21,498 nucleotides of DNA, from positions 1 to 21,498 of the forward strand of contig USNZ01000003.1 in assembly GCA_900556255.1 (NCBI GenBank). The letters run 5' to 3'. Made by a program: the position numbers and the translations under genes. Source of the DNA: an uncultured Oscillospiraceae bacterium (GTDB lineage Bacteria; Bacillota; Clostridia; Oscillospirales; Ruminococcaceae). Position 1 is the stretch's first letter. Every line of letters begins with the position of its first letter. The notes below the pieces were generated by a model, which was not told the DNA's origin, did not search any database, and saw only the letters and a program-made list of their open reading frames with translations. This document shows, piece by piece, positions 5,216-21,498 of this stretch.

Positions 5216-5225
5216 TTTCCCTTCC

Positions 5226-7842: not shown

Positions 7843-8366
7843 AATGATTCCCTCTTACCTTTATAATAGCAGGGTATGCCACATATCACGCGTATTACCC
7901 TGTCCGCGCGGGCGGCTGCCGCATTGTTGACCGCAGCCAACACCCGCAGGTAGTGCAAGGTGTCCCCCGCGTAGTCTGCCCCGCCGCTGAACACCTCATT
8001 TGTAACCAAAATCAAGTCCTCGCACTGCGCGTATACATTGTCGATCCCCTGCAAAATGGCAGCTGCCGTCTGTTCCCCCGCGCCGTTTGGGTCATACAGT
8101 TCGTTGGCAGTCAGGTTTCCCAAATCCTCCAACAGCACCGTACCGCGCACAGACAGCTGCAAATTTTCCAGATGCAGCGGACATTCCACGGTCTCAAATC
8201 GCTTTTCCGCGCGCATGGCACGGTGCTTTGCCACGCGGGCCGCACACTCGGCATCCCAAATTTGCATTGTGGCCAGGTAGGTGCGGGGGGCGTCATTTTT
8301 CAGGCAGAGGGATTCCGCATAGGCGCTTTTCCCGCTGGCCGCACCGCCGATAACCAGCGTCAGCAT
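7839..8366 (-). CDS. cobU: adenosylcobinamide kinase / adenosylcobinamide-phosphate guanylyltransferase
   Basis: CobU phosphorylates adenosylcobinamide and then transfers GMP to it. The 175-residue protein has a Walker A motif (GGAASGKS, 7-14) and a central KHRAMRAEKRFETVECP segment, where His48 is the probable guanylate acceptor. An acidic VLLEDLGNLTANELY stands in the Walker B position. VTNEVFSGG follows near residue 121, and the C-terminus contains ARADRVIRVICGIP. The start overlaps the cobT stop by 7 bases. No convincing ribosome site precedes it, so it probably relies on translational coupling. A second, shorter CobU-like gene lies just beyond cobS. Confidence 0.92.
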   Translation of the reverse strand: MLTLVIGGAASGKSAYAESLCLKNDAPRTYLATMQIWDAECAARVAKHRAMRAEKRFETVECPLHLENLQLSVRGTVLLEDLGNLTANELYDPNGAGEQTAAAILQGIDNVYAQCEDLILVTNEVFSGGADYAGDTLHYLRVLAAVNNAAAARADRVIRVICGIPCYYKGKRESF

Positions 8367-9424
8367 TGCGGGGTGTACGGCGTGATGCCGCCCTCCGCAA
8401 AGGAATAGCAGCCCTCATAAACGGCCAAGGCCATATCCCAAAGAGGCAGCGAGGCCACGGCTCCCGTGCCCTCCCCCAGATGAAATCCCGCGTTGAGCAG
8501 CGGTTTTTTGTGCAATTCTTCCAGCACAAGGCGGGCGGCAGGTTCGCCGGAAAGATGGCTGGCAAAGACCGCCTTTCCCGCCTTGGGGCACATCCGCACA
8601 GCGCAAAGTGCCGCTACACTGCTGATGAACCCATCCATAACGATCGGCAAATTCTCCAGCGCGCCGCCCAAGAAAACACCGCACAACCCGGCAATATCCA
8701 ACCCACCCAGCTTGGCCAACACATCCAGCGGATCGGCGGCATCCGGTGCGTTGACCGCAATGCCTGTTTCTATGGCGCGTATTTTCCGCTGTAGCCCGGC
8801 ATCGGAAAGCCCTGCTCCGCGTCCGGTCATCTCTGCCACGGGGCGGCCCAGCAGCACGCTTGCCACGGCACTGGAGGTGGTCGTGTTGCCGATGCCCATC
8901 TCCCCTGTCGCCAAAATTTGCATACCATCACGTTTTTGCTCGCGTACCAGCGCTATGCCGGCCGCAATGGCCTGCACAGCCTGTGCGCGGGTCATGGCAG
9001 GGCCACGGGTAAAGTCCCGCGTACCGGGGGCAATGCGGCGGTCTATCGCACCCGCCACAGGCTTTCCGGCAATGCCCATATCCACCGCAACGACCTTGCA
9101 ATGGGCCGTCTCGGCCATGCGGCAGACGCTGGTGCGGCGGGCCACCAGATTTTTCAATACAGCGCGCGTAACACAGGCATCGGTCTGGCTGACCCCCTGC
9201 GCAACCACGCCATTGTCGGCGCACAGCACCAACAGGGCGCGGCGCTCAAAATGCAGTTTTTCCGTACCCGTCAGGGCGGCAGCATCCTCCAGCATGGTTT
9301 CCAACTGTCCCAGCCCTCCCAAAGGCTTTGCCAGTGCCGCCCAATGGGCATGGGCAGCGGCACGGGCGGTTTCCCTCGGCGGGGTGATCGTGTTCAGCAG
9401 AATTTTCAATTCGGTTTCGGTCAT
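8360..9424 (-). CDS. cobT: nicotinate-nucleotide:dimethylbenzimidazole phosphoribosyltransferase
   Basis: CobT activates the lower-ligand base to alpha-ribazole phosphate using nicotinate mononucleotide. The 354-residue length is standard. The sequence shows KPLGGLGQLE near residue 35, the CADNGVVAQGVSQT segment, ATGEMGIGNTT at about 172-182, GRGAGLSD, and the catalytic-base segment FHLGEGTGA with Glu318. ATG overlaps the cbiA stop as ATGA and has AAGGAAAA upstream. No dimethylbenzimidazole-forming gene (bluB or bza type) is visible in the window, so the base used cannot be told. Confidence 0.95.
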   Translation of the reverse strand: MTETELKILLNTITPPRETARAAAHAHWAALAKPLGGLGQLETMLEDAAALTGTEKLHFERRALLVLCADNGVVAQGVSQTDACVTRAVLKNLVARRTSVCRMAETAHCKVVAVDMGIAGKPVAGAIDRRIAPGTRDFTRGPAMTRAQAVQAIAAGIALVREQKRDGMQILATGEMGIGNTTTSSAVASVLLGRPVAEMTGRGAGLSDAGLQRKIRAIETGIAVNAPDAADPLDVLAKLGGLDIAGLCGVFLGGALENLPIVMDGFISSVAALCAVRMCPKAGKAVFASHLSGEPAARLVLEELHKKPLLNAGFHLGEGTGAVASLPLWDMALAVYEGCYSFAEGGITPYTPQC

Positions 9425-10767
9425 AGCTTTTCCTTTTTATAGCGGCAGGCAGCAGCCACAAATCGCTGCGGCAGCGGCGTACCCGCCCAATACAAATGCG
9501 GGAACCCCGCATACAAATGCGCGTCGGCAAAGCCGCACGTCCACTGCCTGCCATTTGCCTTGGCGGCCGTAAAGGCCGTACCGTTTTGTGTAGAATCCCA
9601 GTGGTGGAACTCATGCATCGGCAGTGTCTCGCCCGCCGCGAACAGCATACTGTCCGTATGCGCCGTCAGGTTTGCATACCCAAAGCGCACGAGTTTTCCC
9701 ACCTTGAACCCCTGCCCCGACAAAACACCGGCCATGGGGTACACTTTGCCATCGGCGGCTTCCAATGCCTGGCCCAGATACAAAAAGCCGCCGCACTCGG
9801 CCACCGTGGGCAGCCCCACCGTCACTGCATCCCGCACTGCCTTCCGCATAGCGGTATTGGCCGCAAGGGCTTGCGCATACAACTCCGGATAGCCGCCCGG
9901 CAGGTACAGCCCGCCGATGTCCTGCGGCAGCTGCGTATCGGCCAGCGGGCTGAAAAAGCATAACTCTGCCCCATTTTGCCGCAACGCATCCAGCGTTTCG
10001 GCGTAGGTAAAGCAGAACGCTGCGTCCCGCGCCACCGCAATGCGCGCCTGCGTGGGCGGATCCTGCGGTATGTCTGCCGCCTCTGTCGGGCGGTCAAACA
10101 GCGTTTGCATAAGCGGCCAGTCTATGGTTTTTTGTGCCGTGTCGGACAGGATACGGATTTTTTCTTGCAGATCTCCGATCTCCGCAGCGGTTTTCAGCCC
10201 CAAATGTCGGCTCTCCAAGTGGGCCTGCGGTATAGGCGGCAGGTACCCCACCACGGGCAGTCCGGTCTCGTGCTGCAGCATCGGTTTCAGCAGGCTATAC
10301 AAAGATTCACTGCAATCATTGAGCAATATGCCCGTTATGTGGTGGGGCGTGCGAAAAGCCATCAGCCCGCGCAGCTCTGCCGCCAGGGTCAGGCTTGCCC
10401 CTTTGGGCCGCAAAACAAGCAGCACGGGCAGGTCAAGCGTATCCGCCAGATGCCATGCGCTCGCAGTATCTCTTGTGCCGCCCAGGCCGTCGTAGTAACC
10501 CATTGCGCCCTCGCAGACAGCGGCACCGTGTCCCGCTGCATACTGCGCATACAGGCAGCGAACTGTTTCGGGCGGGGAAAAAAACAGATCCAGATTGTGG
10601 CTCTGCACCCCCAAAACCGCGCGGTGGAACATGGGGTCAATGTAGTCAGGCCCTGCCTTAAAGGCGCAAGGCGTCAGACCCCGCGCTTTCATGGCCGCAA
10701 GCAAGGCACATGTCACCGTCGTTTTTCCGCTGCCGGAGTGTGGCGCAGCCAAAAGCATTTGCAGCAT
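9421..10767 (-). CDS. cbiA: cobyrinate a,c-diamide synthase
   Basis: CbiA amidates the a and c side chains of cobyrinate with ATP and glutamine. The 448 residues comprise an N-terminal dethiobiotin-synthetase-like domain (APHSGSGKTT at 8-17, FKAGPDYIDPMFH at 36-48, CEGAMGYYDG near 85) and a C-terminal class I glutaminase domain. That domain has the nucleophile in AECGGFLYL (Cys325), YLPGGYPEL before it, and the histidine in HEFHHW (385-390). GAGGGA lies 6 bases upstream, and the gene starts one base after the cbiET stop. It ends with an ATGA overlap into cobT. Confidence 0.95.
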   Translation of the reverse strand: MLQMLLAAPHSGSGKTTVTCALLAAMKARGLTPCAFKAGPDYIDPMFHRAVLGVQSHNLDLFFSPPETVRCLYAQYAAGHGAAVCEGAMGYYDGLGGTRDTASAWHLADTLDLPVLLVLRPKGASLTLAAELRGLMAFRTPHHITGILLNDCSESLYSLLKPMLQHETGLPVVGYLPPIPQAHLESRHLGLKTAAEIGDLQEKIRILSDTAQKTIDWPLMQTLFDRPTEAADIPQDPPTQARIAVARDAAFCFTYAETLDALRQNGAELCFFSPLADTQLPQDIGGLYLPGGYPELYAQALAANTAMRKAVRDAVTVGLPTVAECGGFLYLGQALEAADGKVYPMAGVLSGQGFKVGKLVRFGYANLTAHTDSMLFAAGETLPMHEFHHWDSTQNGTAFTAAKANGRQWTCGFADAHLYAGFPHLYWAGTPLPQRFVAAACRYKKEKL

Positions 10768-10768
10768 T

Positions 10769-11959
10769 TTATTCCCTCGTAATCAAAAATACCGGGTTGT
10801 TCGCCATCAGCAGATGGAGTTCACCTGCTGTTTTTGTACGGCTGACAGAAATCTGTGTGACCTGCGCGGTCAGCCCGCGCGCCGTCAAGGCCGCAACCGC
10901 CTGCTGCAAGGTTTCCAGCGCAATGGCACTGACGCAAAGCCGCACAGTCGGGTTTGCGGCCAACGCTGCCTCCACGATAGCGTCCAGTTTGCCTTTACTG
11001 CCGCCGATGAATACCGCATCGGGGGCGGGCCAGTTGGTCAAAGCCGCAGGGGCAGTGCCTTTTGTCAGGTGCAGATTTTGCACTGCAAATTTTGCGCGGT
11101 TTTGGGCTATCAATTCACAGGCATCCGGGTCACACTCGGCGGCATATACCTGCCCCTCCGATGCTGCCAACGCCATCTCCACGCTGACACTGCCCGTTCC
11201 TGCCCCTACGTCCCATAAAATGTCATCGGGCTGTATCGCCAGCTTTGCCAGTACGGCAGCGCGCACCTCCTGCTTGGTCATAGGTGTTTTACCACGGATA
11301 AACGCATCATCCGGCAAACCGTGTGTGCGCCGCGGCAGGTTGCAGCGTTCCACCAGCAGTACGCTGAGTGGCGCAAAACTTTGCTGTGCTAATTGTTGCA
11401 CTGTACCCCGCACAAGACGCTGTGACGCAAGGCCCAGATTTTCCCCGACAACCCCCTGCACAGCCCCGCATCCGGCAGCCGCCAGCGCAGCACAAAGTGT
11501 GGCGGGGGTCTCACGGCCGCCGGTCAGGAAAAAGGTCGGCTTTCCTTTTCGGCAGGCCGCCACAGGGTCACAGGCGCACCCGTGGGCCGAGACAAGCTCC
11601 CAATCCTGCCAGGGTCTGCCAAGCGCTGCCGCCAGCAGCTGCACACTGGAAACACCGGGCAGCACCGTATAGGGCAGACCCTGTTGTTCCAGCGCCCGCC
11701 CCAGCGCTGCCGCACCGGAGTAAAATCCGCAGTCCCCGCTAAAAACAACCGCTACACGCTTGTTTTTGTGTACTTGTATCTCTGCAAGAATTTCGTCCGT
11801 CTTATACAGCGCCGAGCGCTGCTGTCCGCCTATCTCAGGCAGAGCCTGCAAAAGACGCCGTGCGCCGAGGACACACTCTGCCTCCTCCAACGCTTTTACG
11901 CCCATCAGCGTCAGCCCGGCATAGTCGCCGCAGCCCATACCGACCAGTGTTATTTTCAT
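10769..11959 (-). CDS. cbiET: fused cobalt-precorrin-7 C5-methyltransferase / cobalt-precorrin-6B C15-methyltransferase (decarboxylating)
   Basis: Both enzymes are joined in one 396-residue protein, like CobL of aerobic organisms. CbiE spans about residues 1-208, a tetrapyrrole methylase with VGMGCGD at the start and FSGDCGFYSG at 73-82. CbiT spans about 215-396, a Rossmann methyltransferase with PMTKQEVRA and the SAM-binding DVGAGTGSVSVE at 250-261, then AAECDPDA. Together they methylate C5 and C15 and decarboxylate the acetate at C12. The start at 11959 is preferred because the family opens with this segment, AGGGAG precedes it, and it overlaps the cbiJ stop as ATGA. Confidence 0.94.
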   Translation of the reverse strand: MKITLVGMGCGDYAGLTLMGVKALEEAECVLGARRLLQALPEIGGQQRSALYKTDEILAEIQVHKNKRVAVVFSGDCGFYSGAAALGRALEQQGLPYTVLPGVSSVQLLAAALGRPWQDWELVSAHGCACDPVAACRKGKPTFFLTGGRETPATLCAALAAAGCGAVQGVVGENLGLASQRLVRGTVQQLAQQSFAPLSVLLVERCNLPRRTHGLPDDAFIRGKTPMTKQEVRAAVLAKLAIQPDDILWDVGAGTGSVSVEMALAASEGQVYAAECDPDACELIAQNRAKFAVQNLHLTKGTAPAALTNWPAPDAVFIGGSKGKLDAIVEAALAANPTVRLCVSAIALETLQQAVAALTARGLTAQVTQISVSRTKTAGELHLLMANNPVFLITRE

Positions 11960-12690
11960 AGTAGCTCCCTGCATCGCTGCAAAATCACCTCAGCGGTCTC
12001 GCCCTGTTCCGCAGGGCGGCGCAGCACCACAAGCTGTACGCCGCACTGCGCGGCAGCCAGAACTTTTTCGGCAAAACCGCCCGCCGCACCGCCGTCCTTT
12101 GTGACCATGTATCGAATGTTGTATTGTTGCATCAGCGCCGTGTTCATTGCCACCGTGAACGGCCCCTGCATCGCTATAATATTGCGGTGCGGAATCCCCG
12201 CCGCCTCACACGCGGCAATGCCCGCAAGGGTAGGCAGCACACGCGGATACAACCGCATAGGAGCAAGGGCGGAAAATGCGGGCAGTTCTTTGGCCCCCGT
12301 AGCAAGCAGTACATTGCCGTGTTTTTCGGCCAGATACTGCGCCGCCTGTGCTGCGCTTTGCAGCACGACACAGCCTGCGGGCAAGGCGCCGGCCGGGCGC
12401 AGAAGGCGGCGATACTCCACCCCTGCCGCCGCTGCTGCCGCGCGGATATTGCACGTTGCCTCGGTCGCATAGGGATGGGTCGCATCCACGCAAAGCACGG
12501 AATCTTGCAGCAAGGCCGTCATTTCGGCGGCATCAAGCCGCCCCGTATGCACAGCCACGCCCGCTGTCACGCCCTGTTCCTCGGCTCCCAGCTCGGTCGC
12601 CACGCAGACCGTTACCTCTGCCCCCAGCGCCGCCAGCTTGCGGGAAAGTTCCCGCCCCTCTGTCGTTCCGCTGAAAATCACGATCCTCAT
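11956..12690 (-). CDS. cbiJ: cobalt-precorrin-6A reductase
   Basis: CbiJ/CobK reduces the macrocycle of cobalt-precorrin-6A with NAD(P)H. The 244 residues show GTTEGRELSRKLA at 8-20, the hallmark DATHPYATEA at 69-78, LLATGAKEL in the middle, YPRVLP, and MVTKDGGAAGGFAEK near the end. All are family landmarks. The ATG at 12690 has an AGGGGGT site upstream and overlaps the cbiH stop. The length is normal. Confidence 0.93.
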   Translation of the reverse strand: MRIVIFSGTTEGRELSRKLAALGAEVTVCVATELGAEEQGVTAGVAVHTGRLDAAEMTALLQDSVLCVDATHPYATEATCNIRAAAAAAGVEYRRLLRPAGALPAGCVVLQSAAQAAQYLAEKHGNVLLATGAKELPAFSALAPMRLYPRVLPTLAGIAACEAAGIPHRNIIAMQGPFTVAMNTALMQQYNIRYMVTKDGGAAGGFAEKVLAAAQCGVQLVVLRRPAEQGETAEVILQRCRELL

Positions 12691-13424
12691 ACGCCGTGAT
12701 ACCCCCTTGGCGTCACCATGCAGCCGCGCACCCTGCGGGTGACGCTATTGCCGATAAACACTGTTGTAAACATGTCCGCCTGTGTTTTTTTCAGTTCCGC
12801 AAGCGTCATCAGGTGCTTTTCCTGGCCTGTGCGGCCGATATTGCGTACCGTGCCGCACAAGGTTTCGGGGCTTTTGCCGTTCGCCAACAGAATCTCGGCT
12901 GCTCTTTGCAGATAATCTGCCCGTCCCTTGGAGGATGGATTATACAGGGCGACGCAGAAATCGCCCATTGCCGCACAGATCAGCCGCTTTTCAATGATTG
13001 CCCAAGGTGTCAGACGGTCCGACAGCGAAATCACGCAAAAATCGTGCCCCAGCGGTGCCCCCAGCACGGCCGCACCGCTTAACGCCGCCGTCAGCCCCGG
13101 CACAATTTCTATTGTCACATCATCAAAATCAACACTCAATTCCAGCAGCGGTGCCGCCATGCCGTACACGCCCGCATCGCCGGAGCAAACAAGCGCCACT
13201 GTCTTGCCGGTCTGCGCGGTTTGCAGCGCCCAGCGGCAGCGGTCTATCTCCCGTGTCATGCCGGTGGTGTAGGTCAGCTTTTCGGGGTACAGCGGGCGTA
13301 TCAGATCGATATACACCGTGTAGCCGCAGAGCACGTCGGCCTTCTGCAAGGCGCTGCGCGCCTGCGCTGTCATAAAGCGGGCATCTCCGGGGCCAAGCCC
13401 CACCACATAGACAAGCTTATCCAT
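12687..13424 (-). CDS. cbiH: cobalt-precorrin-3 C17-methyltransferase
   Basis: CbiH methylates C17 and drives ring contraction of cobalt-precorrin-3. The 245-residue protein is a SAM-dependent tetrapyrrole methylase with VVGLGPGD at 7-14, TTGMTREIDR near 53, CSGDAGVYGMA at 80-90, PGLTAALSGAAVLGAPLGHDF, and ALYNPSSKGR. These phrases separate CbiH/CobJ from the other methylases of the pathway. The start at 13424 (MDKLVYVVGLG) overlaps the cbiG end by 8 bases, with a GGAG element upstream. The longer in-frame extension has no family similarity and lies inside cbiG. Confidence 0.94.
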   Translation of the reverse strand: MDKLVYVVGLGPGDARFMTAQARSALQKADVLCGYTVYIDLIRPLYPEKLTYTTGMTREIDRCRWALQTAQTGKTVALVCSGDAGVYGMAAPLLELSVDFDDVTIEIVPGLTAALSGAAVLGAPLGHDFCVISLSDRLTPWAIIEKRLICAAMGDFCVALYNPSSKGRADYLQRAAEILLANGKSPETLCGTVRNIGRTGQEKHLMTLAELKKTQADMFTTVFIGNSVTRRVRGCMVTPRGYHGV

Positions 13425-14418
13425 CGGTTTTCCATCTCCAATCAGGGGCAAAGGGGCGCAGTGCCACCGCAAAAGTCACCCCGTTGTACGCCCACTTGGG
13501 CACAAACAGTTTCCCACCCGCTGCTTTGACCGCTGCACGTTCGCAGACATTGTCCACACCCGTAACTCCCTTTACAAATTGCGATGCCGTAAAATGTCCC
13601 CGCACGGTGCGCAGTGTCTCGGCCGTGTAAAACTCCGTCGTCCAGCCGTTGTTTTTTGCAAAGTCCAGCAAACCCTGCTCGTCCTTTTTCAGGTCTATGC
13701 TTGCCGCTGCCGCAACGCTTTGCGGAGCCAGGGCATTTGCCGCACAAAAAACGGAAAACGCCTCCTGCAGCCGACACTCACTTATGCCGCGCTTGCAGCC
13801 GATACCCAGCACTGCGATACGTGGCACAATGTGCAGGGCCTCGCCCTCCGGGGTCAATGTCAGTACAAAATCTGCCTGTGCGGCGGTCGCGGCGGGTTCC
13901 AACCCTGCGGGCGGTTCGCCTTCTATCTGCCAGTCGCTGAAATAATGCACCCGCTTGCCAGCCAACAGGGTACCGCTGATGTATTTGATGCGCTCCGGCT
14001 CGGCCACGGCGCAGTGCTGGCGCACCGCCCACTCGTCCACGGCAAAGATACCCCGACCATCGGTGGCCGTTGTAATAACCGGCACCGCGTGGCAAGCGGC
14101 CGCAAGCTGCCGTGTCAAATCGTTCGCCCCGCCCAGATGTCCCGACAAAAGCGAAACCGCAAACCGCCCCTGCTCGTCCAACACAACCACCGCAGGGTCA
14201 ACAGCCTTGCCCCTGCAATGGGGTGCAATCGCCCGCACGGCAATGCCCACAGCCCCCACAAACACAAGGGCATCGGCATTGGAAAACTGCTTTGAAGTCC
14301 AGGCAGCCAAGCTGACACCGTCGGTACCGCACCGCGTCACCGTACCGGGGCAGGTCCGGGCCAGATGTTGTGCCAGCACAAGCCCCTTGGCAGTAAAGGC
14401 AAGGTAGGCACATTTCAT
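13417..14418 (-). CDS. cbiG: cobalt-precorrin-5A hydrolase
   Basis: CbiG opens the delta-lactone of cobalt-precorrin-5A and releases acetaldehyde, a step specific to the anaerobic pathway. The 333 residues show the N-terminal domain with LVFVGAVGIAVRAIAP (51-66) and SGHLGGANDLTRQLA (92-106). The C-terminal domain begins near 200 with VLGIGCKRGIS and ends with FVKGVTGVDNVCERAA and a serine-poor tail. AAAGGAG lies 8 bases before the ATG, and the start overlaps the cbiF stop as ATGA. Its presence shows that the operon uses the cobalt-early route. Confidence 0.94.
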   Translation of the reverse strand: MKCAYLAFTAKGLVLAQHLARTCPGTVTRCGTDGVSLAAWTSKQFSNADALVFVGAVGIAVRAIAPHCRGKAVDPAVVVLDEQGRFAVSLLSGHLGGANDLTRQLAAACHAVPVITTATDGRGIFAVDEWAVRQHCAVAEPERIKYISGTLLAGKRVHYFSDWQIEGEPPAGLEPAATAAQADFVLTLTPEGEALHIVPRIAVLGIGCKRGISECRLQEAFSVFCAANALAPQSVAAAASIDLKKDEQGLLDFAKNNGWTTEFYTAETLRTVRGHFTASQFVKGVTGVDNVCERAAVKAAGGKLFVPKWAYNGVTFAVALRPFAPDWRWKTDG

Positions 14419-15173
14419 GGTGTGGCTCCTTTGCGGTACTCGGTGGTAAAGGCAGGGTCATACAGTTTGCTGCGCTCGTACTTTACGGCAAGAAAATCCC
14501 CCACCACGATCAACGCGGTCTTGGCAATGCCCGCCGCATGGGTGCTTTCCGCCAGAGTGCCCACGGTACAGTGCACAATTTTCTGCTGCGGCCAGCTGGC
14601 CTTATACACAACAGCAGCAGGGGTATCGGGCTTATAAGCCCCCTGTAAAAGTGCTTCCTGCACCCTGCCGGCCATGCCGACGGAAAGAAAAATCACCATC
14701 GTCGCCCCATGTGCGGCCAGGGCTGCCAGTTTTTCGCGCTCAGGTACGGGGGTGCGGCCCTCCATACGGGTGATAATGACCGTCTGGCTGATGCCGGGCA
14801 GTGTGTACTCAGCGTTCAGTGCCGCTGCCGCACCGCAAAAGCTGGATACGCCGGGGGTATCGTCATAGGCGATGTTCCAAGCATCCAGAGCATCCATCTG
14901 TTCGCGGACAGCGCCGTACAGGCAGGGGTCGCCGGTGTGCAGGCGCACCGTGGTTTTATGCGACAATTCGTTTGTTTTTATGACATCCAGTACCTGCTCC
15001 AGCGTCATTTCGGCACTGTTATAAATGGAACAGCCACCCTTGGCAAGCCCCAGCAGCGCCGGGTTGACAAGGCTGCCCGCGTAGATGATGCAGTCGGCCT
15101 TTTGCAGCAGCGCCGCACCGCGCTGTGTAATAAGGTCTGGCGCGCCGGGTCCTGCCCCCACAAAATGTACCAT
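14415..15173 (-). CDS. cbiF: cobalt-precorrin-4 C11-methyltransferase
   Basis: CbiF methylates C11 of cobalt-precorrin-4. The 252 residues are a tetrapyrrole methylase with VGAGPGAPDLIT (5-16), YAGSLVNPALL near 31, RLHTGDPCLYGAVREQM (77-93), DDTPGVSSFCGAAAAL and VIITRMEGRTPVP. These are the distinguishing phrases of CbiF/CobM. GGAGGG lies upstream, and the gene starts one base after the stop of the ATPase-CbiD gene. No CbiL-type C20-methyltransferase is found beside it. Confidence 0.95.
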   Translation of the reverse strand: MVHFVGAGPGAPDLITQRGAALLQKADCIIYAGSLVNPALLGLAKGGCSIYNSAEMTLEQVLDVIKTNELSHKTTVRLHTGDPCLYGAVREQMDALDAWNIAYDDTPGVSSFCGAAAALNAEYTLPGISQTVIITRMEGRTPVPEREKLAALAAHGATMVIFLSVGMAGRVQEALLQGAYKPDTPAAVVYKASWPQQKIVHCTVGTLAESTHAAGIAKTALIVVGDFLAVKYERSKLYDPAFTTEYRKGATP

Positions 15174-15174
15174 A

Positions 15175-17076
15175 TCAGCTTTCCCTCCAGGTTTTCAACA
15201 ATACATCGGCAGATTTTGTTGTGCCCAGGCTGCCGTCTCGGTTGGAAAACACCACCGCGCCCACCGTAAAGGCCCCCGCAGCACGGCGCTGCAAATGCAG
15301 CTGCACAGCGTCAAGCAGGCTCTCCAAAACTGCTGCGCGCAGGTTGGCTGCCTGCAGAATTTCAAGGCAGGCGTCCGTTGTGGCGGCATTCATCAGGGCG
15401 CGGCAGGTAGCCGTGTCAGCCCCGCACAGTGCCGCATGGGCACAGAACAGCTCGGTACGGCAATCTGCCTGCTGTGAGTGGGTATTCATAATGCCGCCCG
15501 CCAGCTTGACCAGCTTGCCGACATGCCCCACAAGCAGCACTTCGGCAAAATCCTCGGCTGCCGCCATATCCAGCGCATCCCCGATGAAATTCGAGATTTT
15601 AACAACGGGTATCTTGCGCAGTTCCGAAAGATTTTCGGCAAGGAAATCCAACCCGTAGTTGCCCGGTGTCAGAATCAGGCGGTTGCTTTTCAGGGCGGCC
15701 TGGTGAATTTCCAATTCCAATGTATCCAGCAGTGCCTGACGGCTCATCGGCTCCACAATGCCGCTTGTGCCCAATACCGACAGCCCGCCCTCGACCCCGA
15801 TATGCGGGTTAAAGGTACGTTTGGCGGCCTCCTTGCCGCCGTCAATGGAGATAACCACCGCAAAACCACCGTTGTAGTCTGCCGCATCGGCCTCCCTGAG
15901 CAGGGCGTCGGTAATCATTTGGCGCGGCACACGGTTGATGGCCGCCGCCCCCACAGGCTGATCCAGCCCCGCCTTGGTCACCCGACCCACACCGACACCG
16001 CCGTCTATCGTCACGGTGCGCGGTGCATCAGGCAGCAGGGTCACCTCAGCCACGACAGGCAGACCCGTGGTGGCGTCCACATCATCACCGCCATCCTTTA
16101 CGATGGCACACTCGGCCCCCGTCTCGGTTGCGCGGCAAAACAAGGGGGCGACCTCCACCACAACCCCCTTTGGCGTGCGCAGCCCCACGGTTTCGGGGGC
16201 GTGTCCGGTCAGCAGCAGACGTGCCGCCCCCGCTGCAGCCAAAGCGGCGCAGGTGCCTGTGGTGTAACCGCAGCGCAGCATTTTTTGTCCGCTGCGAATA
16301 TAGTGTTCAAACTTCGGTGCCGCGTCGGATTTTCCGAACAGTGTTTCGTATTGTATATCGTCCAGAGCAAACAGGCGGCATACGTTTTTCTTGGCAAAAG
16401 CCTCCTTCGGCGTCAAGACGCCGGACACCTTGTGCGGAAACACACAGACCACCGCGTCGGCCAGCTTTTGGGCCAACTCCAGTTCATGCAGTGTCACAAT
16501 AACGGCCACATTTTTTTCAGCCGTCAAACGGCGCAGCACCGCTGTAAGCTCCGCCTTACCCTTTACGTCCAAAAAGGACGTCGGTTCGTCCAGCAGCAGG
16601 ATCTCCGGCTGCTGGCATACCGCCCGCGCCAACAATACGCGCTGCCGCTGCCCGTCACTGATTTTTGCAAAATCACGCTCTGCCAGGGCATCGGCCTGCA
16701 CCAGCCGCAGTGCATCCAGCACCTGCCGCTTATCTTCCTGCGACAAAATCCCCAGTCGCCCCGTGTAGGGGTAGCGCCCTGCCGCCGCCACGTCAAAACA
16801 GCTGGTCAGCTCGGTGCGGGTGCTGTGGGGAAGCATCAGCGCCAGCTTGCGGGCGCGCGCGTTGGGGGAGTATTCCGCCAGACCCTGCCCGTCCAGCAAA
16901 ACGGTGCCGCCCTGCGGAGCCAACTGCCCCGCCAGCGTTTTTAACAAGGTAGACTTACCTGCACCGTTAGGGCCGATCAGCGCCAGAATTTTTCCTCGCT
17001 CGGCATGCAGCGCAATATCCCGCAAAAGCGGGGCTGTGTAGCCGATTGCCAAATTTTTCGTTTCGCAGTAACTCAT
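15175..17076 (-). CDS. cbiD: fusion of FecE/BtuD-type ABC ATPase with CbiD (cobalt-precorrin-5B C1-methyltransferase)
   Basis: One 633-residue frame holds two proteins that are normally separate. Residues 1 to about 250 are an importer ATPase: Walker A GPNGAGKST at 35-43, signature ISDGQRQR at 139-146, Walker B LLLDEPTSFLD at 160-170, and H-loop VTLHELE near 194-200. No glutamine is seen at the Q-loop position (LMLPHSTRTE at 80-89). Residues of about 256-633 are CbiD: LRCGYTTGTCAA from 267, DGGDDVDATTG at 328-338, then NPHIGVEGG and LGTSGIVEPMS at 423-445. CbiD methylates C1 in the anaerobic pathway. GGGGAGGG precedes the ATG at 17076, which overlaps the permease stop as ATGA. An internal ATG at 16281 (residue 266) could start CbiD alone, but only a poor ribosome site stands before it and it begins inside the conserved N-terminus. 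Confidence 0.9.
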   Translation of the reverse strand: MSYCETKNLAIGYTAPLLRDIALHAERGKILALIGPNGAGKSTLLKTLAGQLAPQGGTVLLDGQGLAEYSPNARARKLALMLPHSTRTELTSCFDVAAAGRYPYTGRLGILSQEDKRQVLDALRLVQADALAERDFAKISDGQRQRVLLARAVCQQPEILLLDEPTSFLDVKGKAELTAVLRRLTAEKNVAVIVTLHELELAQKLADAVVCVFPHKVSGVLTPKEAFAKKNVCRLFALDDIQYETLFGKSDAAPKFEHYIRSGQKMLRCGYTTGTCAALAAAGAARLLLTGHAPETVGLRTPKGVVVEVAPLFCRATETGAECAIVKDGGDDVDATTGLPVVAEVTLLPDAPRTVTIDGGVGVGRVTKAGLDQPVGAAAINRVPRQMITDALLREADAADYNGGFAVVISIDGGKEAAKRTFNPHIGVEGGLSVLGTSGIVEPMSRQALLDTLELEIHQAALKSNRLILTPGNYGLDFLAENLSELRKIPVVKISNFIGDALDMAAAEDFAEVLLVGHVGKLVKLAGGIMNTHSQQADCRTELFCAHAALCGADTATCRALMNAATTDACLEILQAANLRAAVLESLLDAVQLHLQRRAAGAFTVGAVVFSNRDGSLGTTKSADVLLKTWRES

Positions 17077-18092
17077 GCCGCGCCCTCCCCGCTGTGGCGG
17101 TGCATCAGCAGCCAGATGACCACAGGCGCACCGAAAACCGCTGTGACCGAGCTGATGGACAGTTCGGTCGGCGCAAACAGGCTGCGGGCCAGCAAATCGC
17201 ACAAAAGGCAGAACGCCGCCCCGCCCAGGGCACACCCCGGCAGAACATGCAGGGGCTTGGCGCTGCCCAGTGCCTGCTTGACAAGATGCGGCACCGCAAT
17301 GCCCACAAAGGAGATCGGCCCCGCAAACGCCGTTACACAGGCCGCCAGCAGGCTGGACAGCAATACCAGCACCGCCGAAAACGCCCGCACAGGGACGCCG
17401 ACGCTGGCCGCATAGCTTTCGCCCATTTGGTAGACCGCAATGGGTTTGGAAAGTAAAAACGCCGCCGCCAGACACGGCACGACCAGCACAGCGGCAGCCG
17501 TCACATTGCCCCAGGTCATGCCGGAAAAGCTGCCCATGGACCAGTTGTGCAGGTTGACAATGTTGGAGTCCTGGGCAAAGGCTACCACAATGTCGGTAAC
17601 AGCCGAGCAGATATAGCCGATCATCACGCCGCAGATGACCAAAATGCTCATCCGCCGCACACGCCGCGCCACTGCCAGCACAAACAGCATAGCCGCCATG
17701 GCTCCTGCAAAGGCCGCCAAAATCAGTGTTAGCGAATTTGTCAGCAGGCCGCTGTTCAAAAAGACGACCATTGTCAGAGCTACCGCCAGCTTGGCACCGC
17801 CTGAGATACCCATAACAAAGGGCCCGGCAATGGGATTGGCGAAAAACGTTTGCAGCAGATACCCCGCCACAGACAGCGCCGCCCCCAAAAGCACAGCCAT
17901 GACAGCGCGCGGCAGGCGAAATTGCAGCAAAATGGTTCGGGCCAGTGGGTCTGCCGCGCGGCCCAGCAGGACCTCTGCCACCGCGGCGGGCGAAAGTGCC
18001 ACACTGCCCCAAAGCAGGTTGAGTGCCAGCAGCACCAGCAATGCTCCTGCCATAGCCGCATATGCGATTGTAAGGCGCTTTGTTGTGTGCAT
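17073..18092 (-). CDS. FecCD/BtuC-family ABC importer permease
   Basis: This 339-residue polytopic protein shows the FecCD hallmark RLPRAVMAVLLGAALSVAGY (59-78), followed by LLQTFFANPIAGPFVMGIS. It also has the late cytoplasmic FVGIAVPHLVK segment that contacts the ATPase. FecCD permeases work as homodimers to import iron chelates, haem, cobalamin or cobinamide. The start at 18092 was chosen for the AAAGGAG site 7 bases upstream, in the 11-base gap after the binding-protein gene. The longer in-frame extension is inside that neighbour. The next gene supplies the ATPase. Substrate is inferred as corrinoid, cobalt complex or tetrapyrrole from the operon only. Confidence 0.92.
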   Translation of the reverse strand: MHTTKRLTIAYAAMAGALLVLLALNLLWGSVALSPAAVAEVLLGRAADPLARTILLQFRLPRAVMAVLLGAALSVAGYLLQTFFANPIAGPFVMGISGGAKLAVALTMVVFLNSGLLTNSLTLILAAFAGAMAAMLFVLAVARRVRRMSILVICGVMIGYICSAVTDIVVAFAQDSNIVNLHNWSMGSFSGMTWGNVTAAAVLVVPCLAAAFLLSKPIAVYQMGESYAASVGVPVRAFSAVLVLLSSLLAACVTAFAGPISFVGIAVPHLVKQALGSAKPLHVLPGCALGGAAFCLLCDLLARSLFAPTELSISSVTAVFGAPVVIWLLMHRHSGEGAA

Positions 18093-18103
18093 AGCCACTC
18101 CTT

Positions 18104-19207
18104 TTATTGCAGCTGCGTCAAAAATGTGAAATCCCCGCCGTCTGAGGCAAAGACCTTGTGCATATCCAGAATCAGGGCGGGCAGATCCATACTTTGCTGA
18201 AAAAGACTTTGCGCCGTGCAATACACCTGCCTGTTTTGCACGGCTTTGCATTCTGCCAGTGCCGGGCATTTGGCCACAAGTTCATCCAGTGTGTGCAGTT
18301 CCCCCTCGATGGTACTGTTGTAAAACAGCACATCGGCATCCTTGGCAGCGGCGTAAAATTCTTCCAGCGAGATATTGACGGTCGCCAGGTTGTTGCCGTC
18401 ATCGGTCAAATCAGAAAAGACGTACTGCCCGCCCGCCAGTTCTATCATTTTGGCAACGTAATCATTCCCCTTGCGCACGGTGGCGAGGTTGTTGGAGGTG
18501 ATGGAGAAAAACGCAGCCGTTTTTCCCGTGGATTTCTGCCCGGCCAGGGGCGCGATCTGCTGTACAGCGGCATCAAACAGCTGTTCCGCCTGCTGCCGTC
18601 TGTCTAAGAGAATGCCGTACAGCTTGACCCACTCCATCCGAGCCAGGGGGTCGCTCTCATAGCTGGAACGCTCGACCAGCACGGGGATACCGCAGCTTTC
18701 CAGTTGCTCTTTTACCTTGGGAGTATGGTAGATCATCGTGTTTTCCAGGGCCAGGTCACAGCCCGCAGACAAGATCGTCTCATAATCAGGGGTGCTGTAC
18801 CGCCCGGCATAAGCGATCTCACCGTTCTGCATGGCTGCGCGGGCTTCGGGCAGATACCACCCCTCTGCCTGTGTACCGGACAACGCCACCTTATCCAGCC
18901 CGCCGATGCGAATGATGGGATCCATCGCGGAGGTGGAAACCAGATAGATGTTCTGCAGCGGCAGCTGCAAAATCGTTATGTCGGCGTCCAATCCATTCGG
19001 CACGGCGGCGCCTGCGGGCACCGTCAGATAACGGCTGCCGTCTATGGTAAGTAAATTGTATCCGCCCGCACACTCGTCCACCGTAAACTCCCGTGCATAG
19101 GATAGCGGGTAGCTGCCCGTCACGGTCAGAGCGTTTTGTGCCGTTTTCGGGGCTGCAGTGCAGCCCGCCAGCAGCGCAGCAAACAGCAGGGTCAGGTATT
19201 TTCTCAT
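18104..19207 (-). CDS. FecB/BtuF-like substrate-binding lipoprotein
   Basis: This 367-residue protein starts with a lipoprotein signal ending LLAGC, with the lipidated cysteine at 16. It continues with the two-lobe FecB/BtuF layout: the GLDKVALSG and GRYSTPDYETILSAGCDLAL regions in the first lobe, a long linking helix around ARMEWVKLYGILL, and the second lobe with GGQYVFSDLTDDG and SLEEFYAAAKDADVLFYN. It would be anchored outside the membrane and deliver substrate to the adjacent permease. The start overlaps the previous gene's stop as ATGA, and I see no ribosome site before it, so translation is probably coupled. The ligand cannot be told from sequence. Confidence 0.9.
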   Translation of the reverse strand: MRKYLTLLFAALLAGCTAAPKTAQNALTVTGSYPLSYAREFTVDECAGGYNLLTIDGSRYLTVPAGAAVPNGLDADITILQLPLQNIYLVSTSAMDPIIRIGGLDKVALSGTQAEGWYLPEARAAMQNGEIAYAGRYSTPDYETILSAGCDLALENTMIYHTPKVKEQLESCGIPVLVERSSYESDPLARMEWVKLYGILLDRRQQAEQLFDAAVQQIAPLAGQKSTGKTAAFFSITSNNLATVRKGNDYVAKMIELAGGQYVFSDLTDDGNNLATVNISLEEFYAAAKDADVLFYNSTIEGELHTLDELVAKCPALAECKAVQNRQVYCTAQSLFQQSMDLPALILDMHKVFASDGGDFTFLTQLQ

Positions 19208-20034
19208 TGTGCGGCCAGCGTAGCGCTGTCAAAGGTCAGGGTATAGTCAATTTCGTGCGGGGTGCTCATGGCGACGGTGTCTGCCGTAACGGCCAGCGCC
19301 GTGTCCAGTGCAGCTACGGGAATTTCAAAAACCGAGTTGCCCTCGGTGTTCACAGGCAGATATTTTTCGCCATCCACCAGCATGTAGTCGTAGTTGGGGC
19401 TGCTCCACACAAGGGTCGCGGTCATGACACCGTCGTGCACCGTCAGCATGGCAGGGCTTTCCACGGAAGCGCGGCCGCTGCCGCCCTCCAGCGTGACGGC
19501 GCAGGTATAGATGCCGTCCGCAGGTGTTTCGGCGGCGGCAGGCACGGCGTTGGCCACCTGCACGGTATGGTCATACCAGGTGCCTTTGGTGCCGATCAGC
19601 GCCAGGGCAAAATCGGTGTCCAACTCCTGCACGGGGATATCGTAGCCATATACCTCCTCGGTGGTTCCGTCGGCGTAGGTCACAGTGTCCACCGTGGGCT
19701 GCAGCCAGTCCGCTGCATGGTCGGGGGCTTCGGCCGCCGTACCGAGATAGAGGTTGACGATTTTCTTGGATGCCAAGCTGACGTGAAACACCATCTCGCC
19801 GTTCTTAACGGTCAGGGTGCCTTTGCCGTTGCAGCTCTCGTTGGCGTGCAGCATGCTGCTGTCGGTGTTGAAATCGGCGGTGTACTCACCATCCGGCAGG
19901 ACATTCTGCTGCTCCGTCGGCTCGGCTGCCGATACCGCCGTGCTTGCGCTGTCTGCCTTGCTCTGCGGTGCGGTTGTCCCACAGCCGACAAGCAGCAGCG
20001 CAGCCAGGCTCAGGGTCAAAAACTGTTTCTTCAT
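19204..20034 (-). CDS. lipoprotein with two tandem beta-sandwich-like repeats (NEAT-like?)
   Basis: This 276-residue protein has a lipoprotein signal (LLVGC, Cys18), a low-complexity linker to about residue 45, and two related domains. Repeat 1 is about 48-160 and repeat 2 about 173-272. Both open with DGxYT (DGEYTADF, DGIYTCAV), carry an LTVxxGxM strand (LTVKNGEM, LTVHDGVM), and contain an IPVxxLDT segment (DIPVQELDT, EIPVAALDT). Repeat 2 adds WSSPNYDYMLVDGEKY. The strand pattern recalls NEAT haem-binding domains, but I cannot confirm membership. The position just before a binding protein and importer suggests surface capture of a ligand, perhaps a tetrapyrrole. AGAGGG lies 8 bases upstream of the ATG, and the gene begins just after a terminator hairpin. 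Confidence 0.78.
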   Translation of the reverse strand: MKKQFLTLSLAALLLVGCGTTAPQSKADSASTAVSAAEPTEQQNVLPDGEYTADFNTDSSMLHANESCNGKGTLTVKNGEMVFHVSLASKKIVNLYLGTAAEAPDHAADWLQPTVDTVTYADGTTEEVYGYDIPVQELDTDFALALIGTKGTWYDHTVQVANAVPAAAETPADGIYTCAVTLEGGSGRASVESPAMLTVHDGVMTATLVWSSPNYDYMLVDGEKYLPVNTEGNSVFEIPVAALDTALAVTADTVAMSTPHEIDYTLTFDSATLAAQ

Positions 20035-20097: not shown

Positions 20098-21327
20098 TCA
20101 GCCGTTCCGCTGTTCCATGGCAGCGGCGGTGTGGGCGGCATACAGGGCCTGTACTTCAGCAATGCCGCCAAGGCCGGCAATCTGGGTGTCTACACTCTCA
20201 AAGCAGTCGGCCGCCTTGAATTGGCTCAGCCAGGAATCATCATCCTCACCGGCCATGTCGTTGTTGGCGTGGTCACCGGCCACGACCATCAGGGGGCGCA
20301 GAACGACCTTGGTATACCCGGCGTCCCGCACCTTTTTAATGACTTCCTCACAGGCGGTATCCTCCGGCTCGCCTTCGACCGTGCCGATAAACACATTGTC
20401 GTAGCCCAGGGTCTGCATGGTAGCCTGCATCTGTTGGTAGCTGACCTTGGCTGTGTGGGAGGTTCCATGGCCCATGAACACAAAAGCAACGCCGTCGGCG
20501 GCGGCAGCAGAGGCGTCGGCATAGCCGGCATTCTTGACAGCCTCAGCGGTGATGGCCTCAGCTACCGCCATTTTATCTTCGTTGATAACGGTGGCATCAC
20601 TGCCCACCTCGCCCAGCAGCGGCTCAGCGATGGCAACATGCTCAAACTTATCCTTGTAGTTCTCGATGGTTTCGCACATTTCGTCGTACTCGGCACCGTG
20701 CATCAGATGGGTGGGCTGTACAACCAGGTTTTTCACACCGTTGGCAACCGCGCGATCCAGAGCCTGCTCCATATTGTCGATTTTCTCGCCGTCGCGCGCC
20801 TGCACATGGTTGATGATGATCTGTGCGGTAAAGGCACGGCGGACGCTCCAATCGGGGTTGGCTGCCTGCAGGGCGTCTTCAATGCCCTTGATATCCTCGA
20901 CGCGGCTGCCGTTGAAGGAGGTTCCGAAGCTGACGACCAGCAGCTCGTTTTCGCCGATATCATCGGCGTTGCGGGGGTCATCGTCAGCGGCATCGCCGGT
21001 GTCGCGGCCAAAGTAATCGGGGTCGGCGTTTTCGCCTTCCACCAGTTTCTTTTGGGCATCGGTCAGGGCATCCCATGCTGCCTTTGCGGCCTCACATTGG
21101 GCATCGGTATCGGCCGTGCGGGTCTGCACATAGATGGCGTCGATCAGATCCGCGCAGTTGCGGGCGGCAGCCTCGTCGGACGAAACTTCCTCCGTCGGGG
21201 CGGCGGAACTCTCGGCAGAGACACTGGTGACTTGGCTTTCGCTAACGGCAGTGCTGCCGCAGGCGGTCAGCAGGGCGGCGCAGAGTGTCAGGGCAACGGC
21301 GGATTTTTTCATGCTGTTCTTTCTCAT
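20098..21327 (-). CDS. cbiK: exported lipoprotein CbiK-type sirohydrochlorin cobaltochelatase-like protein
   Basis: This 409-residue protein starts with a clear lipoprotein signal (lipobox LTAC, Cys23). A serine/acid-rich linker follows, then a helical segment with AKAAWDALTDAQKKLV (81-96), a phrase type common in Gram-positive surface proteins. From about residue 128 comes a CbiK domain: ELLVVSFGTSFNGSR, QPTHLMHGAEYDEM with His207, AEPLLGEVG, and FMGHGTSHTA with His287. These histidines match the metal and tetrapyrrole site of CbiK. CbiK inserts Co2+ into sirohydrochlorin, usually in the cytoplasm. Here the enzyme should sit outside the membrane. Metal removal from, or handling of, external tetrapyrroles is an alternative. 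The start at 21327 has GAAAGGA about 7 bases upstream; the longer in-frame extension has no such support. Confidence 0.88.
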   Translation of the reverse strand: MRKNSMKKSAVALTLCAALLTACGSTAVSESQVTSVSAESSAAPTEEVSSDEAAARNCADLIDAIYVQTRTADTDAQCEAAKAAWDALTDAQKKLVEGENADPDYFGRDTGDAADDDPRNADDIGENELLVVSFGTSFNGSRVEDIKGIEDALQAANPDWSVRRAFTAQIIINHVQARDGEKIDNMEQALDRAVANGVKNLVVQPTHLMHGAEYDEMCETIENYKDKFEHVAIAEPLLGEVGSDATVINEDKMAVAEAITAEAVKNAGYADASAAAADGVAFVFMGHGTSHTAKVSYQQMQATMQTLGYDNVFIGTVEGEPEDTACEEVIKKVRDAGYTKVVLRPLMVVAGDHANNDMAGEDDDSWLSQFKAADCFESVDTQIAGLGGIAEVQALYAAHTAAAMEQRNG

Positions 21328-21498
21328 GTTTTTTTCCTTTCTTAACGTCGAATTGCACGGGAGAGAACAACAGCCGACACCTTCCCACCAAAAAACGAGG
21401 CCTTTTTGCGTGCAGAACGGCAACACAAAAAGACCCCGTATTCAGCAGGTTCTTTGCGGTACAACCAATTCCTCGTGATTTGGAGCTGTGCGCCCCCG
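21328..21498 (-). promoter_or_regulatory. cbiK leader with attenuator-like structure (window-truncated)
   Basis: The 171 bases upstream of cbiK hold an intrinsic terminator but no clear promoter after it. The minus-strand element CAAAGAACC (plus 21448-21456) can partly pair with the GGGGTCTTTTTG 5' arm of that terminator, which would give an alternative, antiterminating fold. This layout fits a riboswitch- or T-box-like expression platform. A cobalamin riboswitch is expected by context, but neither its core nor a convincing B12 box is seen, and the aptamer could lie beyond the window. A T-box-like phrase, TGGTTGTACCGC (plus 21456-21467), matches 10 of 12 positions but spoils the tRNA-end pairing bases. 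Confidence 0.35.
21390..21435 (-). terminator. rho-independent terminator in the cbiK leader
   Basis: Minus-strand GGTCTTTTTG pairs with CAAAAAGGCC over 10 bp (one G-T pair) across a 17-base loop. Six T residues follow (plus 21390-21395). It ends 62 bases before the cbiK start. It either ends a gene beyond the window or acts as an attenuator for cbiK; the alternative pairing described for the leader favours the second. Confidence 0.7.

What the first reader, a model, noticed from the sequence alone, without database searches (positions are those of the whole stretch)
15175..17076. ABC importer ATPase and CbiD encoded as one polypeptide
Seen directly: a single uninterrupted frame carries a full FecE/BtuD-type ATPase (Walker A, signature, Walker B and H-loop) and then a full CbiD with its GYTTGT and LGTSGIVEPMS landmarks. 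The CbiD part has no start codon with a good ribosome site near its native N-terminus, which argues for a real fusion. An importer ATPase covalently joined to a corrin-ring methyltransferase could tether an early B12 enzyme to the membrane importer, or link transport to pathway flux. I do not know this fusion as a standard architecture.
Basis: partly seen in the sequence, partly recalled or inferred. Interest (0 to 1): 0.85.

Follow-up and report, generated by a model that had tools for sequence, protein, structure and literature searches.

The report
Transporter motor fused to B12 enzyme
In a group of gut bacteria the ATP-burning motor of a nutrient importer and an enzyme of vitamin B12 synthesis are encoded as one protein, and a similar joining seems to have arisen at least twice more elsewhere, which suggests that uptake and B12 synthesis can be physically linked.

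Summary
Window 15175-17076 (-) is one 633-aa frame (67 kDa): a FecE/HmuV-type ABC ATPase, a short linker and a complete CbiD. It is no artefact: all 120 listed database hits carry both halves, and 17 of 40 CbiD-bearing Gemmiger and Faecalibacterium genomes have the same frame. Both halves are under purifying selection; the fusions form one clade. Unfused relatives have an accessory C-terminal ATPase domain (PF27219) and a separate, overlapping cbiD; in the fusion CbiD sits in that domain's place, with Pro where its start Met was. Further joins exist: ATPase/Cys-rich domain/CbiD, and CbiO-like ATPase-CbiD in at least 8 of 178 CbiD genomes of one draw. The operon also encodes a CbiK lipoprotein, a NEAT-like protein, a binding protein and a FecCD permease. 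HemB is missing from 28 of 28 genomes with this importer, also from 8 of 8 relatives without it, but present in 8 of 8 CbiO-CbiD genomes. Best reading: a tetrapyrrole-salvage importer with a B12 enzyme tethered to its motor. Substrate and benefit are inferred; a neutral join is not excluded.

The parts
15175..17076 (-). ATPase-CbiD fusion ORF, 633 aa plus stop
16357..17076 (-). ABC ATPase domain (residues 1-240), FecE/HmuV/BtuD type
   Evidence: domain edge judged from the alignment and model
16312..16356 (-). linker (residues 241-255): helix to about 247, then low confidence; in unfused relatives the PF27219 accessory domain follows about here
   Evidence: relatives
15175..16311 (-). CbiD domain (residues 256-633 and stop); begins at FEHYI, the native CbiD N-terminus without its Met
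16279..16281 (-). in-frame ATG (M266), the only ATG near the CbiD start; not conserved
17083..17090 (-). GGGGAGGG ribosome site before the ATPase start
17073..18269 (-). FecCD permease ORF; its stop overlaps the ATPase ATG; the FecCD match begins at residue 77, so the true start may lie further downstream
18104..19207 (-). Peripla_BP_2 binding protein; lipoprotein signal judged by eye
19204..20034 (-). NEAT-like protein (26 bits, Pfam cut-off 32.8); lipoprotein signal judged by eye
20098..21426 (-). CbiK-family chelatase with lipobox and N-terminal extension
14415..15173 (-). CbiF
   Evidence: over cut-off
13417..14418 (-). CbiG
12687..13472 (-). CbiH
   Evidence: over cut-off
11956..12690 (-). 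CbiJ
10769..11974 (-). CbiE-CbiT
   Evidence: both domains over cut-off
9421..10767 (-). CbiA
   Evidence: over cut-off
8360..9424 (-). CobT
   Evidence: over cut-off
7839..8366 (-). CobU (93 bits, below cut-off 161)
7090..7842 (-). CobS (92 bits, below the TIGR00317 cut-off 110)
6179..6817 (-). CobC-like phosphatase (below cut-off)
5226..6287 (-). CbiB
   Evidence: over the TIGR00380 cut-off
4163..5287 (-). CobD
   Evidence: over cut-off
2856..4190 (-). CbiP; its C-terminal end seems to lie in another frame
2009..2677 (-). CbiC

Best explanation
One mRNA gives one 67-kDa protein. Its N-terminal half is the ATPase of a FecCD-type (type II) importer; its C-terminal half is an active CbiD hung on a short linker. 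Two copies should sit under the FecCD permease dimer, so each importer would carry two CbiD domains at the inner membrane face. The importer is proposed to bring in a tetrapyrrole for corrin synthesis: the surface CbiK, NEAT-like and binding lipoproteins would capture and perhaps cobalt-load it, the permease would pass it in, and CbiD and its pathway partners would use it near the entry point. The fusion arose once in the lineage of Gemmiger and Faecalibacterium, from a gene pair in which an ATPase with an accessory C-terminal domain overlapped cbiD: the accessory domain was lost and CbiD took its place. Shown by sequence: the single frame, conservation, selection on both halves, one clade, domain replacement against relatives, parallels, operon context, missing HemB. 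Inferred: one intact protein in the cell, assembly on the permease, tetrapyrrole as substrate, benefit from tethering.
For: Single frame without stops in the window and 18 further fused loci. 120 of 120 listed hits have both halves. Each of the 40 CbiD-bearing genomes of the two genera has one CbiD; in the 17 fused ones it is the fused one. dN/dS 0.06-0.18 for the ATPase and 0.085-0.17 for CbiD in 9 pairs; Walker A, signature, Walker B, H-loop, GYTTGT and LGTSGIVEPMS kept in 19 of 19. The 19 fusions form one clade, SH-aLRT 100. Unfused relatives: ATPase with extra C-terminal part, overlapping cbiD, aligned to the corrinoid ATPase model through that part; PF27219 in the 120 relatives listed and in none of the 120. 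Pro at the place of the native CbiD Met in 19 of 19. Model: two confident domains (mean pLDDT 89), weak linker; the best three fold matches are haem importers HmuUV and BhuUV. CbiK lipobox in 19 of 19 loci read with this importer. HemB absent in 28 of 28 genomes with this importer; HemC absent in 18 of the 19 of them examined. ATPase-CbiD joins elsewhere.
Against: No protein-level data. HemB is also missing from 8 of 8 unfused relatives with a different operon, so lack of tetrapyrrole synthesis is a trait of the wider lineage and does not explain the fusion. CbiO-CbiD genomes have HemB (8 of 8), so a tetrapyrrole importer cannot be the reason for those fusions. CbiD is also joined to CobU, CbiE and a VTT domain, which fits chance joining of neighbours. 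23 of 40 CbiD-bearing genomes of the same genera have a separate CbiD. pTM is 0.55: the placing of the halves to each other is unsure. dS is above 1 in two of the nine pairs, and the linker's dS could not be estimated in five. Rank 4 of the fold matches is the cobalt importer CbiMQO, and BtuCD is at rank 47, so the fold does not settle the substrate.
Confidence: 0.45

Rival explanations
1. Opportunistic fusion: two overlapping neighbours in one operon were joined by a deletion. Both halves work as before and the link has little or no function beyond fixed stoichiometry.
For: In unfused relatives the ATPase gene overlaps cbiD (L014, L046); CbiD has several unrelated fusion partners; the linker varies in length and sequence.
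Against: In the two genera every locus in which this importer was seen beside cbiD is fused (17 of 17); ATPase-CbiD joins seem to have arisen at least three times. Neither point excludes neutrality.
Confidence: 0.3
2. The importer carries cobalt, haem or iron, or finished cobamide rather than a corrin precursor; the fusion links the pathway to its metal or its end product.
For: ATPases of unfused relatives align to the corrinoid-transporter ATPase model almost over their whole length, below cut-off; the nearest folds are haem importers, then CbiMQO; in other genomes the ATPase joined to CbiD is CbiO-like, with CbiM or CbiQ seen next to it in 6 of 8 loci; CbiMNQO genes stand at the same operon place in L026-L028.
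Against: Genomes with this importer lack HemB (28 of 28) and 18 of the 19 examined lack HemC, so they need a tetrapyrrole from outside, and this importer sits in the corrin operon, mostly beside a lipoprotein CbiK. The same lack in relatives without this importer (8 of 8) weakens the argument.
Confidence: 0.3
3. The CbiD half acts as an accessory or sensing domain of the ATPase, as the replaced C-terminal domain may have done, and catalysis is secondary.
For: It sits where PF27219 sits in relatives; three proteins read (P0180, P0189, P0200) have a full CbiO-like ATPase followed by only the N-terminal part of CbiD.
Against: In the fused genomes it is the only CbiD, complete and with low dN/dS, while the pathway needs a CbiD.
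Confidence: 0.12
4. Internal initiation or proteolysis yields a free CbiD, so that the fusion is only on paper.
For: An in-frame ATG (M266) near the CbiD start in the window, and some ATG, GTG or TTG near that start in 10 of 19 fused loci; the linker is short and of low model confidence; one contig with a CbiO-CbiD frame seems to carry a public CbiD record of 370 aa that begins inside the frame (P0122).
Against: These codons lie at differing places and nine of 19 loci have none; the window's ATG is Met in 6 of 120 relatives; I saw no strong ribosome site there (by eye); the native start codon is gone in 19 of 19.
Confidence: 0.12
5. Assembly or sequencing artefact.
For: The window is of unknown origin and another gene (cbiP) looks frameshifted.
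Against: The same join in many independent genomes, two of them complete chromosomes among the named loci (L005, L010).
Confidence: 0.01

Closest known systems
CbiO-CbiD fusions (e.g. P0152 Natranaerofaba carboxydovora; P0155, named by its source CbiD/energy-coupling factor transporter ATPase)
   Same: importer-type ATPase in front, CbiD behind; the loci read lie in cobalamin operons
   Different: ATPase is of the CbiO kind (L166 over the TIGR01166 cut-off), HemB present in 8 of 8 genomes, CbiD of another part of the tree
Corrinoid ABC transporter ATPase, model NF007082/PRK09536 (recalled: haloarchaeal BtuD), and PF27219-bearing ATPases
   Same: same ATPase type; unfused relatives of this locus align to the model into the C-terminal part
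   Different: the fusion has CbiD in place of that part; all scores are below the model's cut-off
Haem importers HmuUV and BhuUV
   Same: best solved fold matches of the ATPase half (36% identity to a HmuV chain)
   Different: no fused enzyme in those entries as listed; substrate here untested
CbiD of Archaeoglobus fulgidus (1sr8)
   Same: fold match of the C-terminal half (rank 50)
   Different: a single-domain chain of 282 residues
FetB (9b86) and the chelatase 2xvx (recalled: periplasmic CbiK of Desulfovibrio)
   Same: CbiK-like proteins matched by the lipoprotein of this operon
   Different: FetB is titled a haem-binding protein; here the gene lies in a corrin operon
Tetrapyrrole precursor salvagers (Shelton et al., PMC6461909; passages and section 13 read)
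   Same: corrin pathway without the early tetrapyrrole genes
   Different: no fusion is mentioned in the main text, and neither Faecalibacterium nor CbiD occurs there; supplements not seen

Membership tests
CbiD (cobalt-precorrin-5B C1-methyltransferase) | full-length match above the curated cut-off | tested here: met
   TIGR00312 382 bits, cut-off 200, model 1-343 of 346; PF01888 1-254 of 254
CbiD (cobalt-precorrin-5B C1-methyltransferase) | methyltransferase activity on cobalt-precorrin-5B | not testable with these tools
   no assay possible; GYTTGT and LGTSGIVEPMS kept in 19 of 19 fusions
ABC importer ATPase, FecE/BtuD/HmuV group | Walker A, signature, Walker B, H-loop | tested here: met
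   (signature in SDGQ form)
ABC importer ATPase, FecE/BtuD/HmuV group | Q-loop glutamine | tested here: not met
   His in 18, Arg in 1 of 19; the place is judged from the recalled LPQ pattern; unfused L014 reads MTD there
ABC importer ATPase, FecE/BtuD/HmuV group | FecCD permease and binding protein next to it | tested here: met
Corrinoid ABC ATPase NF007082 (PRK09536) | score over cut-off 537 and the C-terminal part of the model | tested here: not met
   159.6 bits, residues 7-231 only
ECF ATPase CbiO | score over the TIGR01166 cut-off 211.8 | tested here: not met
   124 bits in the window; met by L166 with 236 bits
Tetrapyrrole precursor salvager | early tetrapyrrole genes missing | tested here: met
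   HemB and HemC each absent in 17 of 17 fused genomes of the two genera; the window's own genome is not held; HemA, HemL and HemD not searched
Tetrapyrrole precursor salvager | complete corrin ring pathway after the precursor | tested here: inconclusive
   10 of these 17 genomes show only 4 tetrapyrrole methylases, none at the place of CbiL; 7 have it
Tetrapyrrole precursor salvager | cobamide made only when a precursor is supplied | not testable with these tools
   needs culture

The most novel reading that the evidence does not exclude
A membrane-bound salvage assembly for vitamin B12: a surface lipoprotein chelatase loads cobalt into a scavenged tetrapyrrole outside the cell, a dedicated FecCD importer brings it in, and the ATPase carries CbiD so that the intermediate enters the corrin pathway at the membrane. 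In the fused species without CbiL the scavenged compound would already carry the C20 methyl group (a factor-III-type compound), a kind of cross-feeding not described in the passages I read.
Probability: 0.2. Interest if true: 0.88.

Novelty: new variant of a known kind. Interest (0 to 1): 0.62.

Why it matters
As far as I recall, fusing an importer's motor to a pathway enzyme is rare. Here the same enzyme seems to have been joined to importer-type ATPases at least three times, including in gut genera that are (recalled) very common in people. If the link works, transport and corrin synthesis are physically coupled. The surrounding operon is a concrete candidate for the unknown importer of bacteria that make cobamides but cannot make the tetrapyrrole ring, which makes a question about gut cross-feeding testable.

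Tried and rejected
Artefact or chance frame: rejected by relatives and selection. Longer open frames of unfused CbiD genes in G287 (646 aa), G143, G575, G086, G074, G1017, G612, G183, G329 and G530 as further ATPase fusions: rejected after reading them, since CbiD has its own start there and no BLAST query and 48 hits upstream in that frame; these ten were not scanned against Pfam. Other partners found on the way: CbiD-CbiE (L163, L164, by BLAST and reading only), CobU-CbiD (L169) and VTT-CbiD (L171). Rfam scan of the window: nothing over a gathering score, so no riboswitch was found. Solved-structure searches with the binding protein (one weak hit) and the NEAT-like protein (no sensible hit) did not tell the substrate. 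Paper searches for the fusion and on related questions: passages were read of PMC6461909, PMC4403557, PMC6593275 and PMC2700814; the others were seen only in listings, so a mention inside them is not excluded. The accessory C-terminal domain was modelled with its ATPase (small alpha/beta domain) but not searched, because the ATPase would dominate. PF27219 did not turn up in the local Pfam scan, so I do not know its name. My notes call the non-conserved Met M264; the right number is M266.

Full report
CHECK OF THE OBSERVATION. The frame at 15175-17076 (-) translates to 633 residues without a stop. Pfam and NCBIfam place a FecE-type ABC ATPase at the front and a complete CbiD behind. The ATPase start has a strong ribosome site (GGGGAGGG, 17083-17090) and overlaps the stop of the FecCD permease. 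The CbiD half begins at FEHYI, which in unfused L014 follows on the start as MAFEHYI. The place of that Met is Pro in 19 of 19 fused loci. The ATG at M266 is shared by few: of 120 listed database relatives 6 have Met and 114 Leu there. Some ATG, GTG or TTG lies near the CbiD start in 10 of 19 fused loci, at differing places; 9 have none.

IS IT REAL. The protein search listed the best 120 of 7722 hits (only 7999 candidates were scored); all 120 hold both halves. A scan of named genomes kept the best 80 of 196 loci; ten of the 80 (L001-L010, Gemmiger and Faecalibacterium, two of them complete chromosomes) have ATPase and CbiD in one frame with no stop. Of the held genomes of the Gemmiger genus 16 of 35 carry CbiD and 3 are fused; of the Faecalibacterium genus 24 of 31 carry CbiD and 14 are fused (read with 24 and 34). 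Each of these 40 genomes has one CbiD match. Nine pairwise comparisons give dN/dS of 0.06-0.18 for the ATPase and 0.085-0.17 for CbiD (dS above 1 in two pairs); the linker could be measured in four pairs (0.09-0.33). Walker A, signature, Walker B, H-loop, GYTTGT and LGTSGIVEPMS are kept in 19 of 19; the Q-loop Gln, as I place it, in none. The 19 fusions form one clade (SH-aLRT 100), with the window and three Gemmiger loci (99) and 14 Faecalibacterium loci (99) as sub-clades and L160 (G571, in neither genus set) beside them (quick tree of 103 rows, one row dropped before).

WHERE IT CAME FROM. In Evtepia (L014), Dorea (L046) and other loci the same importer genes stand before cbiD, but the ATPase has about 110 further residues and its gene runs into a separate cbiD with its own start. 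Three such ATPases (L014, L046, L155) align to the corrinoid ABC ATPase model NF007082 into this extra part (to residues 335-348), far below its cut-off of 537. The 120 relatives listed carry precomputed PF27219; the 120 fused proteins do not. So CbiD occupies the place of an accessory domain. The linker varies in length and is rich in Pro, Glu and Lys in many species. The model gives two confident domains and a weak linker (mean pLDDT 89.4, pTM 0.55, residues 250-256 and 260-266 under 50). Of the 23 unfused CbiD loci in the two genera, 21 show a distant CbiK next to cbiD, 10 a distant ATPase and 1 CbiO in the short stretches held; in two (L127, L130) nothing was seen upstream.

PARALLELS. A draw of 394 genomes of the order had 85 with CbiD; four have an ATPase-CbiD frame: G003, G184, G571 and G425, the last with a Cys-rich PF04071 domain in between. 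A family draw of 297 had 93 over the cut-off, two of them fused (G003 and G184 again). A draw of 398 from the phylum of the Dorea genome had 178 with CbiD, of which at least 8 have a CbiO-like ATPase and CbiD in one frame (the listing was cut); six of these eight were scanned with Pfam and confirmed, and CbiM or CbiQ was seen beside six of the eight. A protein search with one of them listed 120 hits, 63 with both domains, one of these with a partial ATPase. The FecE clade, L158 and the CbiO-type fusions lie apart in the CbiD tree, so the most economical reading is at least three joins; losses between them are not excluded, and many deep forks are weak. Against a special meaning: CbiD is also joined to CbiE, CobU and a VTT membrane domain.

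WHAT THE IMPORTER MAY CARRY. Upstream of the fusion are the permease, a binding protein, a NEAT-like protein and a CbiK-family protein. The CbiK has a lipobox in 19 of 19 loci of this type that were read; of 23 other CbiK genes in cobalamin operons one pattern match (L030) looks spurious and the rest have none. One of those 23, L022, resembles the lipoprotein kind (46%) but shows no signal. The window's CbiK matches 1qgo (cobalt chelatase), FetB 9b86 and 2xvx. Each of the 17 fused genomes has one CbiK; its lipobox was read in 11 of them (L001-L010, L157) and is assumed in the other six from position. HemB is absent in 27 of 27 genomes (17 fused, 2 unfused with this importer, 8 with the other operon) and in 9 of 9 further genomes with this importer, but present in 8 of 8 CbiO-CbiD genomes and in 2 of 2 unfused relatives (L026 with CbiMNQO genes; L030, whose upstream region is not held). 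HemC is absent in 26 of 27; the exception, Dorea, does carry this importer. Ten of the 17 fused genomes, and G571, show only four tetrapyrrole methylases: by position CbiF, CbiH, CbiE and one elsewhere (taken as RsmI), so no CbiL and no CobA. The other seven have five, with CbiL in the operon and again no CobA. One of the ten, G005, is the genome of a complete chromosome (L005), so the gap is not just missing sequence. In Shelton et al. (PMC6461909; passages and section 13 read) CbiL/CobI is found in 99.2% of predicted producers and 87.1% of tetrapyrrole precursor salvagers, so this loss is odd. These facts make a tetrapyrrole the likeliest cargo to my mind, but they are correlations within related lineages, and HemB is also missing from relatives without this importer.

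MECHANISM. By analogy with BtuCD and HmuUV (general knowledge; fold matches, with CbiMQO at rank 4) two ATPases serve one permease dimer, so two CbiD domains would hang below each importer. Tethering could raise the local supply of intermediate, or fix the ratio of importer to enzyme. None of this is shown. CbiD is not the first enzyme after uptake, so direct hand-over is unlikely unless the partner enzymes gather there too.

PRIOR REPORTS. Searches for CbiD with fusion and ABC transporter (9 papers), CbiO with CbiD and fused (1 paper) and cobalt-precorrin-5B with ABC transporter ATP-binding or fusion protein (15 of 140 listed) showed no paper on this architecture. They were judged from listings and, for PMC2700814, one passage. 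One database source names a CbiO-CbiD protein by both functions, so the architecture is visible to annotators even if I found no discussion. Of PMC4403557 and PMC6593275 I read passages only.

VERDICT. The fusion is real, conserved, and part of a wider, recurrent pattern. Its function as a tether, and the importer's substrate, remain open. New variant of a known kind, interest 0.62.

Noticed in passing
genomes G001-G003, G005-G007, G009, G339, G346, G347 and G571 (fused), and G425, G051, G1112: No CbiL (and no CobA) found among tetrapyrrole methylases although the rest of the corrin operon is kept; how C20 is methylated there is unexplained. Some of these genomes may be incomplete.
   Followed up: partly
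window 20098-21426: CbiK as a lipoprotein; each of 17 fused genomes has one CbiK only, so cobalt insertion may happen outside the cell.
   Followed up: partly
P0180, P0189, P0200: Full CbiO-like ATPase followed by only the N-terminal part of CbiD (ends near ILGTTG); P0189 is named as a Dehalococcoidia MAG: perhaps a non-enzymatic CbiD domain, or truncated records. P0182 and P0230, of like length, were not read.
   Followed up: no
L158:5134-8295 (-): Three-part protein: FecE-type ATPase, Cys-rich PF04071, CbiD.
   Followed up: partly
L169, L171, L163, L164: CobU-CbiD, VTT-CbiD and CbiD-CbiE joined frames: CbiD has several fusion partners.
   Followed up: partly
window 2674-4190: cbiP seems split by a frameshift: its C-terminal end is in another frame. 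Could be an indel in this assembly.
   Followed up: no
window 6772-7089: A 105-aa reading frame matching only the C-terminal part of CobU, beside another CobU at 7839-8366.
   Followed up: no
residue 84 of the fusion: The usual Q-loop glutamine (place judged from recall) is His (Arg in one) in 19 of 19 fusions and also altered in unfused L014.
   Followed up: partly
P0007: A database fusion of 821 aa with an internal repeat of part of the ATPase and linker; may be an assembly error.
   Followed up: no
P0122 against L166: A public record starts CbiD inside the CbiO-CbiD frame on a contig of the same length, so such fusions may be trimmed in annotation.
   Followed up: no
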